From an uncultured Eubacteriales bacterium (GTDB lineage: Bacteria; Bacillota; Clostridia; Lachnospirales; Lachnospiraceae), in the NCBI GenBank assembly GCA_900315425.1, contig OMZA01000008.1, forward strand, positions 1 to 64,000: a stretch of 64,000 nucleotides of DNA, in the 5' to 3' direction. The position numbers and the translations under genes are program-made. Positions 38,069 through 45,706 of this stretch are shown here, piece after piece. The first letter of the stretch is position 1, and every line of letters begins with the position of its first letter. Below the pieces are notes generated by a model. The model was not told the DNA's origin, searched no databases, and saw only the letters and a list, made by a program, of their open reading frames with translations.

Positions 38069-38422
38069 ATGGCAAGAAGAGGCGGATATCAGGGCGGAAT
38101 GCCGGGAAATATGAACAACCTTATGAAACAGGCCCAGAAGATGCAAAAGCAGATGGAGACAGCAACAAAGGAGCTTGAACAACAGGAAGCAACAGCCAGT
38201 GCAGGCGGCGGAGCTGTAGAAGTAACAGTATCGGGAAAGAAAGAAGTAACAAAAGTAAAGATTGATCCGGATGCAGTGGATCCAGATGATGTGGAAATGT
38301 TAGAAGATATGATAATGGCGGCTACAAATGAAGCATTAAGAAAAATTGAGGAAATGTCACAGCAGTCAATGGCTAAAATCACAGGCGGCCTTGGCGGCGG
38401 TTTTGGCGGATTAGGATTCTAA
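38069..38422 (+). CDS. ebfC: Nucleoid-associated protein, YbaB/EbfC family
   Basis: 117 residues. N-terminal [18 protein letters not shown] is the family start, then the [18 protein letters not shown] core and a Gly-rich end. The dimer binds DNA and often lies between dnaX and recR, as here. The stop overlaps the recR start (TAATG). Confidence 0.95.
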
Positions 38423-39018
38423 TGGATTACTATAGTAAGCATATAAATGATTTAATAGAAGAATTTTCAAGGCTCCCGGGAATAGGCAGTAAGTCAGCAG
38501 GGCGCCTTGCATTTCATATAATAAATATGCCTGAAGAACAGGTAAAGCATTTAACGGATACCATAATAAATGCTAAGAAAAATGTAAGATATTGCAAATG
38601 CTGCTATACTCTTACGGATGATGAATTATGTCCGATATGTAAGAGTACAAAGAGAGACCATGAAACTATAATGGTGGTGGAAAATACCAGAGACTTGGCG
38701 GCATACGAAAAGACAGGCAAATTTAACGGGGTATACCATGTATTGCATGGAGCCATATCCCCAATGTTAGGGATAGGACCTAACGATATAAAATTAAAGG
38801 AACTAATGGAAAGACTAAGAGGGGATGTGAAAGAAGTAATCATATCCACCAATTCAAGTCTTGAAGGAGAGACAACGGCGGTATATATAAGCAAACTTAT
38901 AAAACCCCTAGGAATAAAAGTAACAAGAATAGCTAGTGGAGTGCCAGTAGGAGGAGACTTAGAATACACAGATCCGGTAACCCTTCTAAAAGCCTTAGAA
39001 GGACGACAGGAACTATAG
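38422..39018 (+). CDS. recR: Recombination protein RecR
   Basis: 198 residues. Helix-hairpin-helix [16 protein letters not shown], zinc finger [16 protein letters not shown], and Toprim domain starting [17 protein letters not shown]; the C-terminal Walker-like [11 protein letters not shown] is present. Works with RecF/RecO to load RecA at gaps. The JetA-like gene begins 31 bases downstream, so both are probably cotranscribed. Confidence 0.96.
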
Positions 39019-39049
39019 CACAAAGCAAGTTATAGACGAGGTAAGAGGT

Positions 39050-40570
39050 ATGTCCCAGGAATATTCCCTTAAAAGAGACATAGTACAGGATCACAATCAG
39101 CGAATGCTGAACATAAAAAAATATTATCCATTCTTTAAACTACAGGATATGCAGTTTAAAGGTGAAAAATACGCAATGCTGGACATGGGTTATTTAATGA
39201 TGGCAGTATTGCGCTTTTTTATTGAAGAGAACAACTTCAAGGAAAAGATGGTAACCTATGAAGAATACTCGGAATTCATGGAAAGTATCCTGGAAAATGA
39301 TTTCGAAATAACCTTTCAGGAAGAGGAAGAGAAAAAACTGCTGATAAGCTACATATTTGACAAACTAAAAAACGATGGAAAGCCATTTTCCTACGAATAC
39401 TACAATCCTATAACAAAAAAGAAAAATGTAGCAAGAACAAGGATACTAAACAACCGAATAGTGGATGATAAAGTTGTATATTACATTTCCGCAGACGCAA
39501 TAGAATTCTACCTTGATACTAAGGAAGTAAAGGAAGAAAGCAATATAGCAATATCACAGCTTCTTTTGGAAAAAATGATATCCACAAGAAACTTCAAAGG
39601 TGGAGCAGATGTTGTATCCAGAATAAATAACGAAGTATCAAGACTCATGGCCAGAAGAGAAGAAATACTTGAAATACTAACCTATGACGTATTTCAGGGA
39701 ACTAAGGCCTACGAAGATTTCATGGAAAATACCGTGAAATGGTTTGATGAAGAACAGAAGTTATTTAAGAAAAATAAGACATTGATAGAAGAGGCTATGA
39801 AAAATAGCAATGCATCAGGGGAATACAGCCAGGCAGCAAGGGATATATTTAAGTTAGAAGAAGAATTAAATATAGCTATAAATAAACACGGAGAGCTTTT
39901 AAATGCCTGTGCCACATTGCAAGATAAAGTGGATGATTTAGTGGAAAAGGCAAAGATATCAAGGATAAGAGCATCCATGGATTTTAAGAAATTACTAAAT
40001 AGGGCCATGGATAGTGGAGATTCTAAGGTATTAGAAAGTTTTGTAAAACCGTTGTTTGCCTTGAATACCAGAAAAATGTTTTCACCAATAATGATTGATA
40101 ATCTTCTTACATACCCTACTGGTGAAAAAGAGGTAGGAGAAAAGGTAATAAGTGGGGAAGAGATAGAGGACTTCAAATATCCAGATGAGATAGAGGAAGA
40201 GAGAATAAGACATAATCTGAAGGTACTAACATATTTGCTGTGTAATATGGTGAAAAAAGGAGAATTATTTACGGCACTAGACTTCATAGATATGGCAGAA
40301 AAAGTCAGTGGAGAAGGGATAAAAAATAATGGGGACTTTTATACATTTATGGTGCATCTCATGCAGAAAAAAAGTGTGGATGTAAGTAAAGTGTTAGAAA
40401 AACCGGATACATTTTTAGAAGGAATTATAAAAGAAGTATTGGAAAATGATGAAGAGGCCATGTCAAAGTACAAGGGACTCAAATTCACCATAGTACCGGG
40501 AAGAGACGAGATAAAACTTCAAAAGGGAGTAATACAGGATTTTGCAGTTGATGCGAGAGGAGGCAATTAA
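39050..40570 (+). CDS. jetA: JetA-like kleisin subunit of a Wadjet/MukBEF-type complex
   Basis: 506 residues resembling the Wadjet JetA/MksF/MukF group, which joins SMC heads as the kleisin. Seen features are an N-terminal winged-helix-like domain (about residues 25-130), a SADAIEFYL..KEVKEESNIAI segment like the MukF group, a long helical coil (about 170-330), and a C-terminal winged-helix-like end. It begins 31 bases after recR, with GAGGTAAGAGG upstream, and its stop overlaps the jetB start by one base. Base composition matches the neighbouring core genes. The assignment rests on gene order and length with a JetB- and JetC-like gene next; single-gene similarity alone would be weaker. Confidence 0.75.
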   Translation: MSQEYSLKRDIVQDHNQRMLNIKKYYPFFKLQDMQFKGEKYAMLDMGYLMMAVLRFFIEENNFKEKMVTYEEYSEFMESILENDFEITFQEEEEKKLLISYIFDKLKNDGKPFSYEYYNPITKKKNVARTRILNNRIVDDKVVYYISADAIEFYLDTKEVKEESNIAISQLLLEKMISTRNFKGGADVVSRINNEVSRLMARREEILEILTYDVFQGTKAYEDFMENTVKWFDEEQKLFKKNKTLIEEAMKNSNASGEYSQAARDIFKLEEELNIAINKHGELLNACATLQDKVDDLVEKAKISRIRASMDFKKLLNRAMDSGDSKVLESFVKPLFALNTRKMFSPIMIDNLLTYPTGEKEVGEKVISGEEIEDFKYPDEIEEERIRHNLKVLTYLLCNMVKKGELFTALDFIDMAEKVSGEGIKNNGDFYTFMVHLMQKKSVDVSKVLEKPDTFLEGIIKEVLENDEEAMSKYKGLKFTIVPGRDEIKLQKGVIQDFAVDARGGN

Positions 40571-41286
40571 TGGAAGATAGAGAACTTACCACTGCTTTGG
40601 AAATAGTATCTAAGCTGATAAATGGAGAAGAAATAAGTAGAGACGAAGCTGGCAGCAGAGCTCTTTATCAGGAATATTCAGAAAATGCCAGAGTCTTTGA
40701 CATAACCAGCGAGATATGCAAAAACATGAACATCAGTCTGTATGAATACGACAACAGTCTGTATGCATCACCGGGAGAAAATAACAAGGTGTTTGGATAC
40801 ACCAACGACGATTTGAAAAGAGTAATCGGAGTTAGACTTAACAAGGAATTATACCTTTGTTATTTCATAATCTACAACGTGATAACATGGTTTTATAAGG
40901 ACTCTACCACCAGAACCTTCAATGAATACCTAAAGATACAGGATATTGTAAGTTCGGTAAATGCATCCTTATCCAATATAGTGAACAACTTTGAGATAGT
41001 AGATATGGACACTGTGGAGGAAGGAAGTTTTAAAGAGATAGCACTTCTCTGGGAAGATATGCCAATGGTGGCAAATGTAAACACCAACGTAAGGGCATCG
41101 AGAGGCTCAAAGGTGGGATTTGTGAAAATGACACTGAACTTCTTAATAGACCAGGGACTGATTACGGAAAACAATGAAAGATACTATCCTAAGAAACGAA
41201 TGAAAGCATTGGTTACGGGATATTTTGAAGAATATAAAGGACGACTATACGATATTATGAAAGGAGTAGAAAATGCCACACATTAA
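40570..41286 (+). CDS. jetB: JetB-like (MksE/MukE-type) subunit
   Basis: 238 residues, mostly helical, with a winged-helix-like C-terminal part (FLIDQGLITENNERYYPKKRM) as in MksE/MukE/JetB proteins, which bind the kleisin and DNA as dimers. It overlaps jetA by one base and jetC by 14 bases, so the three are translationally coupled. I recognise it mainly by context and fold-like pattern. GGAGGC lies ahead of the ATG. Confidence 0.7.
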   Translation: MEDRELTTALEIVSKLINGEEISRDEAGSRALYQEYSENARVFDITSEICKNMNISLYEYDNSLYASPGENNKVFGYTNDDLKRVIGVRLNKELYLCYFIIYNVITWFYKDSTTRTFNEYLKIQDIVSSVNASLSNIVNNFEIVDMDTVEEGSFKEIALLWEDMPMVANVNTNVRASRGSKVGFVKMTLNFLIDQGLITENNERYYPKKRMKALVTGYFEEYKGRLYDIMKGVENATH

Positions 41287-44200
41287 CAGAATCAGGGTAA
41301 ATAATGTTAAGTACAACTTTGGAACCCAGTACTACGATGATTTTTTAATGAGATTTTCGTGCAAAAACACCATTTATGATCTGGCAAATGGTGGTGGAAA
41401 AAGTGTATTAATGCTACTCCTATTGCAGAATCTGATACCAAATTGTACCTTGGACGACAAGCAACCAATAGAGAAATTATTCAGAACCCACAATGGAAGT
41501 ACGACAATACATTCCTTGGTGGAGTGGCGACTGGCAGCATCAGAAACCAAGGAAAATTATAAATATATGCTAACAGGATTTTGTGCCAGAAAGGCAAAGA
41601 ATTCAGAAAATGACGACTTAGAAGAGGTGGAAAACCTTGAAAATATACAGGCAGAATCAGAGGGGACAGGTGCAGCCTCAGGATCAATAGAATACTTTAA
41701 CTACGTAATATTTTATAGACAGTTTAACGAGAATGACATAAAGAATCTACCACTTTCCAAGGATGGGGAGAGGATAACATATACAGGTCTTAGAAACCAT
41801 TTAAAGAAAATAAGCAGAAGCGATATGAGTCTTGAGGTTCATGTATTTGACACTAAAAGAGAATATCAAAGATTTATAGCGAACTTTGGATTGTATGAAA
41901 GTCAGTGGGAAATAGTAAGAGGAATCAACAAGACAGAAGGTCATGTAAGAACATATTTTGAGACTAATTATAAAACCACAAGAAAAGTAGTGGAGAATCT
42001 CTTGATCGAAAATATAATTGAAAAGTCCTACAGAAACCGATATGCCGGGGAAAACCAGGAAAACAATATGGCAGGAACACTCCTTAGCATAAAGGACAAA
42101 TTATTGGAGTTGTCAAAAAAGAAGGCAGAGATAAATAATTACGACAGACAGATAGATATAATAGATGGATTCCGGGAAAAACAAAGTGGACTTAGAACGT
42201 TATTTTCTGGAATTGACAATGGACTGTGGGATTTAAAAAGAGCCTATAATACAGTGAGTCAAAGAGAAATTGAAAATAAAAACGAGCTAAAAGCCCTTAT
42301 GGAAAACAGGGTGGATTTAACAAAGAAGAGAAGTACACTGACTCAAAAAGTAGATACTGCCGCAGTTTTAAGGGACATGGAACAGGCAGAGATATTTACA
42401 AAGAACATAGAAGAATATGAGAGAAAATATGAGTTTGAAGAAGGAAAGATGCAGGACAAAAACGATGTCATCAACCTACTTCAAGCATGGGACTACTATA
42501 AACGATATCTAAATTACAAAGACGAAAGCGACAAGTTAAAAATCATGATTGAAAATGTCCTTAAGGACAATCAGGATTTGGTAAATGAAATAGGAACGCT
42601 GGTAGCATATAAAAAATATGCTGACGATAAAAAGAAAGCAGAACTTACAGAAGAGATTGCTAAAAAGAAAGAACAGTGGGAAAAAGATTCTACGGTGATG
42701 ACCACCTTAGAGGACACCATTAAGGAAGAAGAAAGCAAAATAGCAGTATTAAAATATCAGACCAAAACAGATAAAGAAGAATCAGATGCCCTTAATCAAG
42801 AGATAGCAAGACTTGTTAGAGATACGGATTTGGTATTTCCAAAGGATGCCTACGAAGCAAAGAAGAAAACAGAAAAGGAATTAGAGGTAATCCAAAAAGA
42901 ACTAGAGGAACTTACGAAAAAAACAGAAGCTTCTTCCAAAGAAATAATGGAGCTTAGAATACAGCAGGCTCTGGCTCAAAGAGATGAAGCGGAGTTTGAA
43001 AATGCAGATGCCAATAAAGAGGCAAGAGACGACGATGCAGTGCGTATAAAAAATAAGATAGAAAAACTTAAGGAAGTATACGAAGAGTCAGATTTAGATG
43101 AGATATCCATTAAAATAAATAAGATATATGATGGAATTTTAATGGCGATAGTAAAGGACAATCAGGATATAAAGGAACTAAAGGCAAAAAAAGAAGCTTT
43201 AAAGTCTGGAAAACCATTTGCAGAATCCAAGGATATACAAGAAGTTAAAGAATATATTCAAAGATATCATGGCAAAGTGATTACAGGAATGGAATATTTA
43301 ATGTCGCTTCCTGAAAAAGACAGAGTTGCCATAGTTACAAATCAGCCGATGATAACAAAGGCCATAATTGCAGGAGATAATTACTCCGAAATAATTATAG
43401 ACGATGGGCTTATAAAGATGGCCAAGGACGGAGAAGGATTCCTAATAATAAATGGCAAAGAATTTGGTGGGGAGATACTCTCTGACAACAGCGTCAATTA
43501 CATAACTAACAAGGATATTTACACCGAAAGTTATATAGAAAAAGCCCTTATAAAAGTCGAAAATGAGTTAAAGGACAAAGAAGAGTTATTGGAAAGACAT
43601 AAAGAAAACGCAGATGTAGTAATGGAAGATCTTGCATTTTCTTTGAAATATGTAAATAGCTCTAGTCAGGAAGTGATTAAGGATTCAAAGGAAAGTCTTT
43701 TAAAGATAAGAGAAGATTTGAAGTTAATCAATGAAAGATTAAGGGACGCCGACAGAAAAAATGCAGATATAAAAGATAGAATAGTAATCCTTACAAAGAA
43801 AAACAATGACATAACATTTGCTAACGAAAAGTATGGAGAAATAGTTGGAAAGCTTGAAAGAGCCGACAAACTGGAAGTAAAAATTGCCAAGGGTGAAAAG
43901 GAATTAGACAATCTTGAAAAAAATGTATTTAACGAGAAGAAGCGTCTGGAGGCTGGAAAAGGAATAGACCTTAAGAGACAGGCAAGAATTAATGCTATGA
44001 TTAAGGAAGTTGAGATAATAGAAAAGAACTGGAACGAAATATACAGCGTTTATTTTGATGAGAAAGAATATGAAAAAGCTGTAGAAAATGCAGAAGAAAA
44101 TATTTCAGAGGATTTGGAAAATAAAATCCAGGCCTTAATAGCCAGTCTTAAAAATGACAACTCATCTATGGAGGACAAGGAAAAACTTCTGGGAAATTAT

Positions 44201-45706
44201 CAGGAAAACATGAAGTCTGCCTTAAGACAGATAAAAATGTTGGGCATAAGCACAGAAGATTTAGAAAAAGCCTACAAAGATGGAGAAGCTCTTGAATATA
44301 ACGAAGAAGAAGTGACAAGGCTTCAAAAGGAAATCAGGGAGATAAAAAGAAGCTTAACAACTATAGGACATGAACTAAACGAAGTAAGGTCTAAAAGGGA
44401 TAAGATGGAAGGCCGTATAAATCACGGAAGAACTCTTATAGAAAGTAAGTATGGAAGCTTTGATAAGAACATGGTATCCAAGGATGAGATAGCATCATTT
44501 TTAAATGAAAATTCCACAATACTTGCCCAGATTGAAAATCAGTTAAAGGAAGTTAATACTCAGATTCAAAATATAGAAACTAATCAGGTAAACATATCGG
44601 TGCTAAAAAAAGATATTACAAGAACCATGGAAAAATCCAAGGTAACACCGGATGAAAGTGCAGGAATGCTTACAGGATCTGCCATTGAAGAAGAGATTAA
44701 CAAAATTAATAAGAACCTGGATGCGTTTATAAATGAAAGGTACAAAAAACTACAGGAATTCGAAAGAGAAAAAGGAATGCTAAGTGACACATTGATACAG
44801 CTGGGAGCAAGAGAGTTAGCTGAAGAGATTCGAAGTAATGTGGAGATGCCTTCAAACGTCGAGGAAGTGGATGACCTTATTGAAAGATTAAAAGACACAA
44901 CCCAATATATCAATCTTGAGAAAGAGAGAATTATTAAGGGATTTGAAGATATTCAAACAATTAAAGATAAGTTTGAAAATCAATGCATACAAAATTGTAT
45001 AAACATAAAAACGGAGTTAGACAGACTTCCTGAGTTATCGAAGATAAATTTGGATGGTAAAGATGTATCAGTGGTAGGTTTGAAAATTCCATATGTGGCA
45101 GAAGAACTGTATAAAGACAGAATGTCAGAATACATAGATGCCATTGCCGCAGGAGTGGATGAATTTAATACGGAAGCTGAAAAAATAAGATATATAAAGA
45201 ATAATCTAAGCTGGAAGAAATTGTTCTCGGTAATTGTAAGAGACATGAATGCTATAAAGCTAAGTCTTTACAAGAGAGAAAGAATTGCAAGTCAGTCAAG
45301 ACTTCTACCATATGAAGAGGCGGTGGGAAGTACAGGACAGTCTCAGGGAATATACATACAGTTTTTGATAGCAGTAATCAATTACATTTCATGTATAAAC
45401 TCAGGACAGACGGACACCACCAAATTAAGAAAAGTAATATTTATAGACAACCCATTTGGTGCGGCTAAGGACATTTATATTTGGGAACCTATTTTCAAAC
45501 TTCTCAAAGTAAATAATGTGCAGTTAATTGTTCCATCAAGAGGAGTAACACCATCAATTACCGGTAGATTTGATGTTAATTACGTATTGGGACAAAAAAT
45601 GACACCAGCAGGTCAGCAGACGGTGGTGGTAGATTATTACAGCAATGTCAAGACGGAAGAAATGGACTATGAAACAATGGATTTCCAGCAGATAGCATTG
45701 TTTTGA
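41273..45706 (+). CDS. jetC: JetC-like SMC ATPase
   Basis: 1477 residues with the SMC layout: N-terminal head with the P-loop LANGGGKS (about residues 38-46), long coiled coil to about 640, hinge domain (about 650-750, with GMEYLMSLPEKDRVAIVTNQP), a returning coiled coil, and a C-terminal head with signature STGQSQG (about 1352) and Walker B VIFIDNPFGAA (about 1390). Two motifs are odd: the first Gly of the P-loop is Leu, and the Walker B catalytic Glu is Asn. It belongs with MukB/MksB/JetC, not with the chromosomal Smc. No JetD-like Toprim nuclease gene follows. Confidence 0.82.
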   Translation: MPHINRIRVNNVKYNFGTQYYDDFLMRFSCKNTIYDLANGGGKSVLMLLLLQNLIPNCTLDDKQPIEKLFRTHNGSTTIHSLVEWRLAASETKENYKYMLTGFCARKAKNSENDDLEEVENLENIQAESEGTGAASGSIEYFNYVIFYRQFNENDIKNLPLSKDGERITYTGLRNHLKKISRSDMSLEVHVFDTKREYQRFIANFGLYESQWEIVRGINKTEGHVRTYFETNYKTTRKVVENLLIENIIEKSYRNRYAGENQENNMAGTLLSIKDKLLELSKKKAEINNYDRQIDIIDGFREKQSGLRTLFSGIDNGLWDLKRAYNTVSQREIENKNELKALMENRVDLTKKRSTLTQKVDTAAVLRDMEQAEIFTKNIEEYERKYEFEEGKMQDKNDVINLLQAWDYYKRYLNYKDESDKLKIMIENVLKDNQDLVNEIGTLVAYKKYADDKKKAELTEEIAKKKEQWEKDSTVMTTLEDTIKEEESKIAVLKYQTKTDKEESDALNQEIARLVRDTDLVFPKDAYEAKKKTEKELEVIQKELEELTKKTEASSKEIMELRIQQALAQRDEAEFENADANKEARDDDAVRIKNKIEKLKEVYEESDLDEISIKINKIYDGILMAIVKDNQDIKELKAKKEALKSGKPFAESKDIQEVKEYIQRYHGKVITGMEYLMSLPEKDRVAIVTNQPMITKAIIAGDNYSEIIIDDGLIKMAKDGEGFLIINGKEFGGEILSDNSVNYITNKDIYTESYIEKALIKVENELKDKEELLERHKENADVVMEDLAFSLKYVNSSSQEVIKDSKESLLKIREDLKLINERLRDADRKNADIKDRIVILTKKNNDITFANEKYGEIVGKLERADKLEVKIAKGEKELDNLEKNVFNEKKRLEAGKGIDLKRQARINAMIKEVEIIEKNWNEIYSVYFDEKEYEKAVENAEENISEDLENKIQALIASLKNDNSSMEDKEKLLGNYQENMKSALRQIKMLGISTEDLEKAYKDGEALEYNEEEVTRLQKEIREIKRSLTTIGHELNEVRSKRDKMEGRINHGRTLIESKYGSFDKNMVSKDEIASFLNENSTILAQIENQLKEVNTQIQNIETNQVNISVLKKDITRTMEKSKVTPDESAGMLTGSAIEEEINKINKNLDAFINERYKKLQEFEREKGMLSDTLIQLGARELAEEIRSNVEMPSNVEEVDDLIERLKDTTQYINLEKERIIKGFEDIQTIKDKFENQCIQNCINIKTELDRLPELSKINLDGKDVSVVGLKIPYVAEELYKDRMSEYIDAIAAGVDEFNTEAEKIRYIKNNLSWKKLFSVIVRDMNAIKLSLYKRERIASQSRLLPYEEAVGSTGQSQGIYIQFLIAVINYISCINSGQTDTTKLRKVIFIDNPFGAAKDIYIWEPIFKLLKVNNVQLIVPSRGVTPSITGRFDVNYVLGQKMTPAGQQTVVVDYYSNVKTEEMDYETMDFQQIALF

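What the first reader, a model, noticed from the sequence alone, without database searches (positions are those of the whole stretch)
39050..45706. JetA-JetB-JetC-like SMC complex without JetD, fixed behind recR
Three overlapping genes match the size, order and layout of Wadjet JetA (kleisin), JetB (winged-helix) and JetC (SMC ATPase). Wadjet defence against plasmids needs JetD, a Toprim nuclease, and none is present in the window. The genes lie 31 bases after recR, inside the dnaX-ebfC-recR housekeeping cluster, and share its base composition. This suggests a resident chromosome-organising or repair complex of MukBEF/MksBEF type instead of a mobile defence island.
Basis: partly seen in the sequence, partly recalled or inferred. 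Interest (0 to 1): 0.7.

Follow-up and report, generated by a model that had tools for sequence, protein, structure and literature searches.

The report
Wadjet SMC complex without its nuclease
Three genes behind recR encode the motor parts of a Wadjet type III complex (JetA, JetB, JetC) without the DNA-cutting partner JetD, an arrangement shared by one branch of related gut and rumen bacteria, where it was likely inherited with the chromosome and would serve chromosome upkeep instead of plasmid defence.

Summary
Confirmed: window 39050-45706 encodes JetA3, JetB3 and JetC3 (Wadjet type III), 31 bases behind recR, with no jetD beside them. The only JetD found in this genome belongs to a complete, separate type I Wadjet on another contig. 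Outside this branch jetD lies directly upstream of jetA in 31 of 35 testable type III loci; inside it in 0 of 45, and 25 of 39 genomes show no JetD at all. Trees of JetC and of JetA+JetB each group the branch (48 JetC rows), next to two JetD-bearing loci; one loss of jetD there is the simplest history. JetC history largely follows host DnaX+RecR history (23 of 43 splits shared; at most 3 in shuffles). No phage record and one distant plasmid record match. The recR position is one of several (22 of 48 loci), and same-genus G330 lacks the genes there. ATPase motifs are intact; 41 of 42 carriers keep ScpA. Best reading: a nuclease-free, vertically kept, accessory condensin-like complex derived from a type III Wadjet, parallel to MksBEF. 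Gene content and inheritance are shown; the chromosome function is inferred. Six searches of the held papers listed no description of it.

The parts
38422..39018 (+). recR, the gene directly upstream (context; it stands where type III loci outside the branch have jetD)
   Evidence: Pfam RecR and Toprim matches
39019..39049 (+). 31-base gap between recR and jetA; no jetD, and no terminator-like or promoter-like site on the + strand here
39050..40570 (+). jetA3, kleisin-type subunit (506 aa)
40570..41286 (+). jetB3, KITE-type subunit (238 aa)
41273..45706 (+). jetC3, SMC-type ATPase (1477 aa)
   Evidence: PADLOC JetC3 E 0
41387..41404 (+). JetC Walker A-type motif NGGGKS (label recalled)
   Evidence: in 48 of 48 branch rows
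45329..45343 (+). JetC signature-type motif STGQS (label recalled)
   Evidence: in 47 of 48 branch rows; the other row is cut by a contig end
45446..45457 (+). JetC Walker B-type motif DNPF (label recalled)
   Evidence: in 47 of 48 branch rows; the other row is cut by a contig end

Best explanation
This is a Wadjet type III JetABC complex whose branch lacks the JetD nuclease, most likely through one ancient loss, and it likely works as an accessory condensin-like motor that would load on the chromosome and extrude DNA loops without cutting. Shown: the three subunit genes, intact ATPase motifs, no JetD beside the genes in the 45 branch loci that could be tested, one branch in two protein trees, largely host-like inheritance, recurring neighbourhoods, and ScpA (the kleisin of Smc-ScpAB) in 41 of 42 carriers. 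Inferred: assembly of JetA, JetB and JetC into a ring, ATP-driven loop extrusion (described for Wadjet JetABC, not tested in this branch), co-expression with dnaX-ebfC-recR, and a role in chromosome organisation, segregation or recombinational repair.
For: Type III identity of all three proteins. JetD absent beside jetA in 45 of 45 testable branch loci, against presence in 31 of 35 testable type III loci outside; 25 of 39 branch genomes have no JetD_C match anywhere at E up to 0.01. Branch support 98-99 for JetC and 97 for JetA+JetB; the JetD state needs 3 changes, shuffled labels at least 19. JetC and DnaX+RecR trees of 46 genomes share 23 of 43 splits (at most 3 in 1000 shuffles), distance correlation 0.74 (at most 0.29 in 2000 permutations). 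ATPase motifs in 47-48 of 48 rows. Two genomes (G515, G534) hold a complete type III D-A-B-C system besides the JetD-less one. No phage match, one distant plasmid match. Precedent: a review judges that P. [quoted passage not shown]
Against: No functional data. The genes are dispensable: strong JetC matches in only 38 of 299 genomes of the family, and G330 and G314 nest among carriers without them. Eight well-supported JetC splits are not in the host tree, and in the larger host tree the recR-linked hosts are partly scattered on weak forks; the JetA+JetB tree does not group the recR-linked loci cleanly (support 71). 14 of 39 branch genomes do hold some JetD elsewhere. Only ScpA, not Smc or ScpB, was searched for.
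Confidence: 0.65

Rival explanations
1. It is still a defence system: JetABC likely traps or silences foreign circular DNA without cutting it, as Smc5/6 does with viral circles.
For: Descent from Wadjet; patchy presence, 38 of 299 family genomes; a review describes SMC-based restriction without cutting by Smc5/6 (PMC10586767, passages).
Against: Largely host-like inheritance and recurring neighbourhoods; several carriers have a complete type I or III Wadjet besides it.
Confidence: 0.17
2. JetABC likely works with a nuclease encoded elsewhere: JetD of another Wadjet in the cell, or an unknown one.
For: 14 of 39 branch genomes, the window's own among them, hold a JetD elsewhere.
Against: 25 of 39 hold none that PF09983 detects; the type III JetD profile gave only one further weak, partial match there (G325, E 0.007). 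Where resolved, the other JetD sits in its own complete operon.
Confidence: 0.1
3. It is a decaying Wadjet remnant.
For: jetD is gone; G330 and G314 lack all three genes; one jetA of the branch (G370) reads as two frames.
Against: JetC is one open frame in the matches that belong to the branch, at 34-49% identity to the window's, with motifs kept in 47-48 of 48 rows.
Confidence: 0.03

Closest known systems
Wadjet type III (JetABCD)
   Same: JetA3, JetB3 and JetC3 proteins and their order
   Different: No jetD, which stands directly upstream of jetA in 31 of 35 testable type III loci outside the branch
MksBEF of Pseudomonas aeruginosa
   Same: A Wadjet-like complex without its nuclease, beside a canonical SMC complex (PMC10586767, passages; PMC7485682, abstract)
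   Different: This one derives from type III; the MksBEF proteins themselves were not compared here
MukBEF
   Same: Predicted JetA fold nearest MukF and JetB near MukE
   Different: No Pfam Muk family match at E up to 1; MukBEF is described as having replaced Smc-ScpAB (PMC10586767, passages), whereas 41 of 42 carriers keep ScpA
Wadjet type I (JetA1-B1-C1-D1), present in the same genome
   Same: Same kind of complex
   Different: Complete with JetD1, on contig C31; its proteins match type I models and the window's JetC did not match its JetC even at E up to 10

Membership tests
Wadjet type III defence system | JetA3, JetB3 and JetC3 proteins in one operon | tested here: met
   PADLOC models, E 5.6e-188, 2.9e-99 and 0
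Wadjet type III defence system | JetD Toprim nuclease in the operon | tested here: not met
   none beside jetA here or in 45 of 45 testable branch loci
Wadjet type III defence system | Restricts plasmids | not testable with these tools
   needs plasmid uptake and stability assays
MukBEF | MukB, MukE and MukF sequence families | tested here: not met
   no Muk family among Pfam matches at E up to 1
MukBEF | Kleisin and KITE folds like MukF and MukE | tested here: met
MksBEF | Three-subunit complex without nuclease | tested here: met
   no JetD beside the genes
MksBEF | MksB, MksE and MksF sequence relatives | not tested
   no MksBEF sequence was compared
Condensin-like chromosome complex | Intact SMC-type ATPase motifs | tested here: met
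   47-48 of 48 rows
Condensin-like chromosome complex | Acts on chromosome structure or segregation | not testable with these tools
   needs Hi-C, imaging and deletion strains

The most novel reading that the evidence does not exclude
Early in this family a type III Wadjet lost its nuclease once and became a chromosome machine: a further kind of bacterial condensin, kept beside Smc-ScpAB and, in one branch, wired to replication and recombination through the dnaX-ebfC-recR operon, where it acts with RecR at broken or stalled forks.
Probability: 0.25. Interest if true: 0.85.

Novelty: new variant of a known kind. Interest (0 to 1): 0.62.

Why it matters
It is a natural experiment in turning a plasmid-destroying machine into a resident one: relatives with and without JetD exist, and two genomes hold both forms. 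That makes the question of how an immune SMC motor becomes a housekeeping one directly testable. It also warns that counting JetA, JetB and JetC alone as Wadjet would credit such genomes with a plasmid defence that may not exist.

Tried and rejected
JetD too diverged to be seen: PF09983 found JetD beside jetA in 9 of the 13 divergent type III loci of the order search, so a type III JetD profile was built from 11 rows (A1). It found JetD beside jetA in 18 of 20 phylum loci (the other two end at a contig end) and beside none of the branch loci. The 11 rows match it by construction.

RecR as substitute for JetD: by the thresholds used, no RecR residue separates 22 linked from 55 unlinked rows.

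Loss of a JetD-docking surface: columns conserved in JetD-bearing and changed in branch rows were 2 in JetA, 1 in JetB and 4 in JetC; at JetC 1347 the JetD-bearing G003 and G306 already carry the branch residue, so it marks lineage.

The 1344-aa protein behind jetC as a dedicated fourth subunit: it stands within 2.5 kb behind jetC in 37 of 48 loci, but its C-terminal part also occurs in 25 of 30 JetABC-negative genomes, so it is more likely an old neighbour.

Mobile element: no JetC match in 50,697 phage records; one match (20% of the query, 22% identity) in 72,556 plasmid records, on a 0.9 Mb replicon.

Structures: the JetA model is weak (pLDDT 69, pTM 0.37), so its MukF match is supportive only. 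JetC was not folded (over the length limit).

Papers: searched the held open-licence papers; subscription papers are not held, and most listed papers were seen only as listings. Passages were seen of PMC10586767, PMC12287153, PMC10123090 and PMC12647877, the abstract and outline of PMC7485682.

Full report

JetD in the own genome. The genome (52 contigs, 96% complete) has one JetD_C match, on contig C31. It is JetD1 of a complete type I operon JetA1-JetB1-JetC1-JetD1. The type III JetD profile finds nothing in this genome at E up to 0.01.

Survey. JetC was sought in 392 genomes of the order (28 with a match, 15 strong), 299 of the family (41, 38 strong) and 398 of the phylum (35, of which 3 strong, all in the window's family). 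Strong means E of 2.1e-156 or lower; the next phylum match has E 6e-84. The first two surveys give 42 genomes with strong matches. The 13 named records of a separate scan are titled Lachnospiraceae, Clostridiales, Clostridia, Butyrivibrio or Roseburia metagenome-assembled genomes, and the fetched JetC stretch of same-genus G322 is shared with one of them, RUG015. So the family is very likely Lachnospiraceae; the window's genome itself is unnamed.

Gene order. Outside the branch I looked at 37 type III loci: 13 divergent ones of the order, G003, G306, second systems of G515 and G534, and 20 of the phylum. jetD lies directly upstream of jetA in 31; two loci end before that point (L175, L178); in four it is not there (L077, L078, L086, L087). 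Inside the branch (48 JetC rows: 39 genomes and 9 named loci) the upstream side is held for 45, and none has jetD there. Of the 39 genomes 14 have a JetD_C match somewhere and 25 have none. Of the 14, four have a complete type I operon (G000, G322, G421, G617), two a complete second type III operon (G515, G534), two only short JetD1-like frames (G402, G484), and six were not resolved.

Trees. JetC trees of 63 and 84 rows place the 48 rows in one branch (support 99 and 98) next to JetD-bearing G003 and G306 (99). G466, a strong match with unknown JetD side, lies outside. The JetD state needs 3 changes; shuffled labels need at least 19 in 200 draws. A tree of JetA+JetB gives the same branch (47 rows, support 97). 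The simplest history is one loss of jetD in this branch, with separate losses in G069 with G131 and in G116. These are quick trees with a simple model, and long branches meet among the outgroups.

Inheritance. For 46 of 50 genomes (48 branch rows plus G003 and G306) DnaX and RecR were at hand. JetC and DnaX+RecR trees share 23 of 43 splits (at most 3 in 1000 shuffles), and distances correlate at 0.74 (at most 0.29 in 2000 permutations); eight JetC splits with support of 95 or more are not in the host tree. JetD-bearing G306 is one discord: its JetC joins G003, its DnaX+RecR join JetD-less hosts, as expected of a transferred defence system. With 29 JetABC-negative hosts added, presence needs 9 changes (shuffled at least 18 in 200), and G330 and G314 nest among carriers, so they most likely lost the genes; many forks of that tree are weak, and some recR-linked hosts (G427, G325 with L011) fall away from the others.

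Place in the genome. In 22 loci jetA follows recR, at 6 to 1088 bases by the first start codon; all 22 fall in one 24-row JetC sub-branch (support 97-98), though the JetA+JetB tree gives this only with two extra rows and support 71. In that sub-branch's complement other neighbours recur, for example a malic-enzyme-like gene closely behind jetC in G028, G421, G448, G495 and G521 (name judged from the printed sequence, not from a profile). In G330 recR is followed after 93 bases by the gene that in the window follows jetC; this recR order was seen in 6 of 30 JetABC-negative genomes. 41 of 42 carriers have ScpA.

How it most likely works. In Wadjet a JetABC motor extrudes the plasmid and JetD is activated once extrusion is complete (PMC12647877, passages). 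Without JetD the motor part would remain: a ring that loads on DNA and pulls loops. A review judges that P. [quoted passage not shown] MksBEF and SMC there both organise the chromosome and guide its segregation (PMC7485682, abstract). I therefore take this branch to be an independent, type III-derived accessory condensin. Ring assembly, loop extrusion, loading and phenotype are inferred.

Novelty. A JetA search gave 1384 relatives at E up to 1e-20, of which 120 were listed; the few names shown are 'hypothetical protein'. PADLOC already has type III models that fit these three proteins closely, so the parts are known; the JetD-less, host-inherited branch is what I found no account of.

Noticed in passing
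L002:6363-12888 (own genome, contig C31): Complete type I Wadjet JetA1-JetB1-JetC1-JetD1 in the window's genome; same-genus G322 and G330 also hold complete type I operons.
   Followed up: partly
window:45847-49881: 1344-aa protein behind jetC with weak TPR matches at its N-terminus, long KAE/AER-rich repeats and a P-loop-like stretch near its C-terminus; its size varies much among relatives (about 700 to 1990 aa), and it is common without JetABC.
   Followed up: partly
L086, L087 (G069, G131) and L078 (G116): Three divergent type III JetABC loci outside the branch without JetD beside them and no JetD match in the genome; G131 is a single-contig genome. Possible independent losses of jetD.
   Followed up: partly
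L014:8087-8725; L015:2067-2678; L073:6442-7353: An extra gene stands directly behind jetA: a metallophosphoesterase-like one in L014 and L015 (judged from its sequence) and a membrane-protein-like one in L073; in L014 and L073 it separates jetA from jetB.
   Followed up: no
window:45446-45457: Type III JetC has DNPF where SMC ATPases usually have an acidic residue after the Walker B aspartate (recalled): 47 of 48 branch rows and 33 of 36 other rows, with or without JetD.
   Followed up: partly
L076 (G306): JetD-bearing type III system whose JetC joins another family's (G003) while its DnaX and RecR join JetD-less hosts: likely a horizontal transfer.
   Followed up: partly
L191 (G370): jetA behind recR reads as two frames (409 and 126 aa): a break or an assembly fault.
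   Followed up: no
L159, L160 (G515, G534): Both genomes carry a complete type III D-A-B-C Wadjet on another contig besides the JetD-less one.
   Followed up: partly
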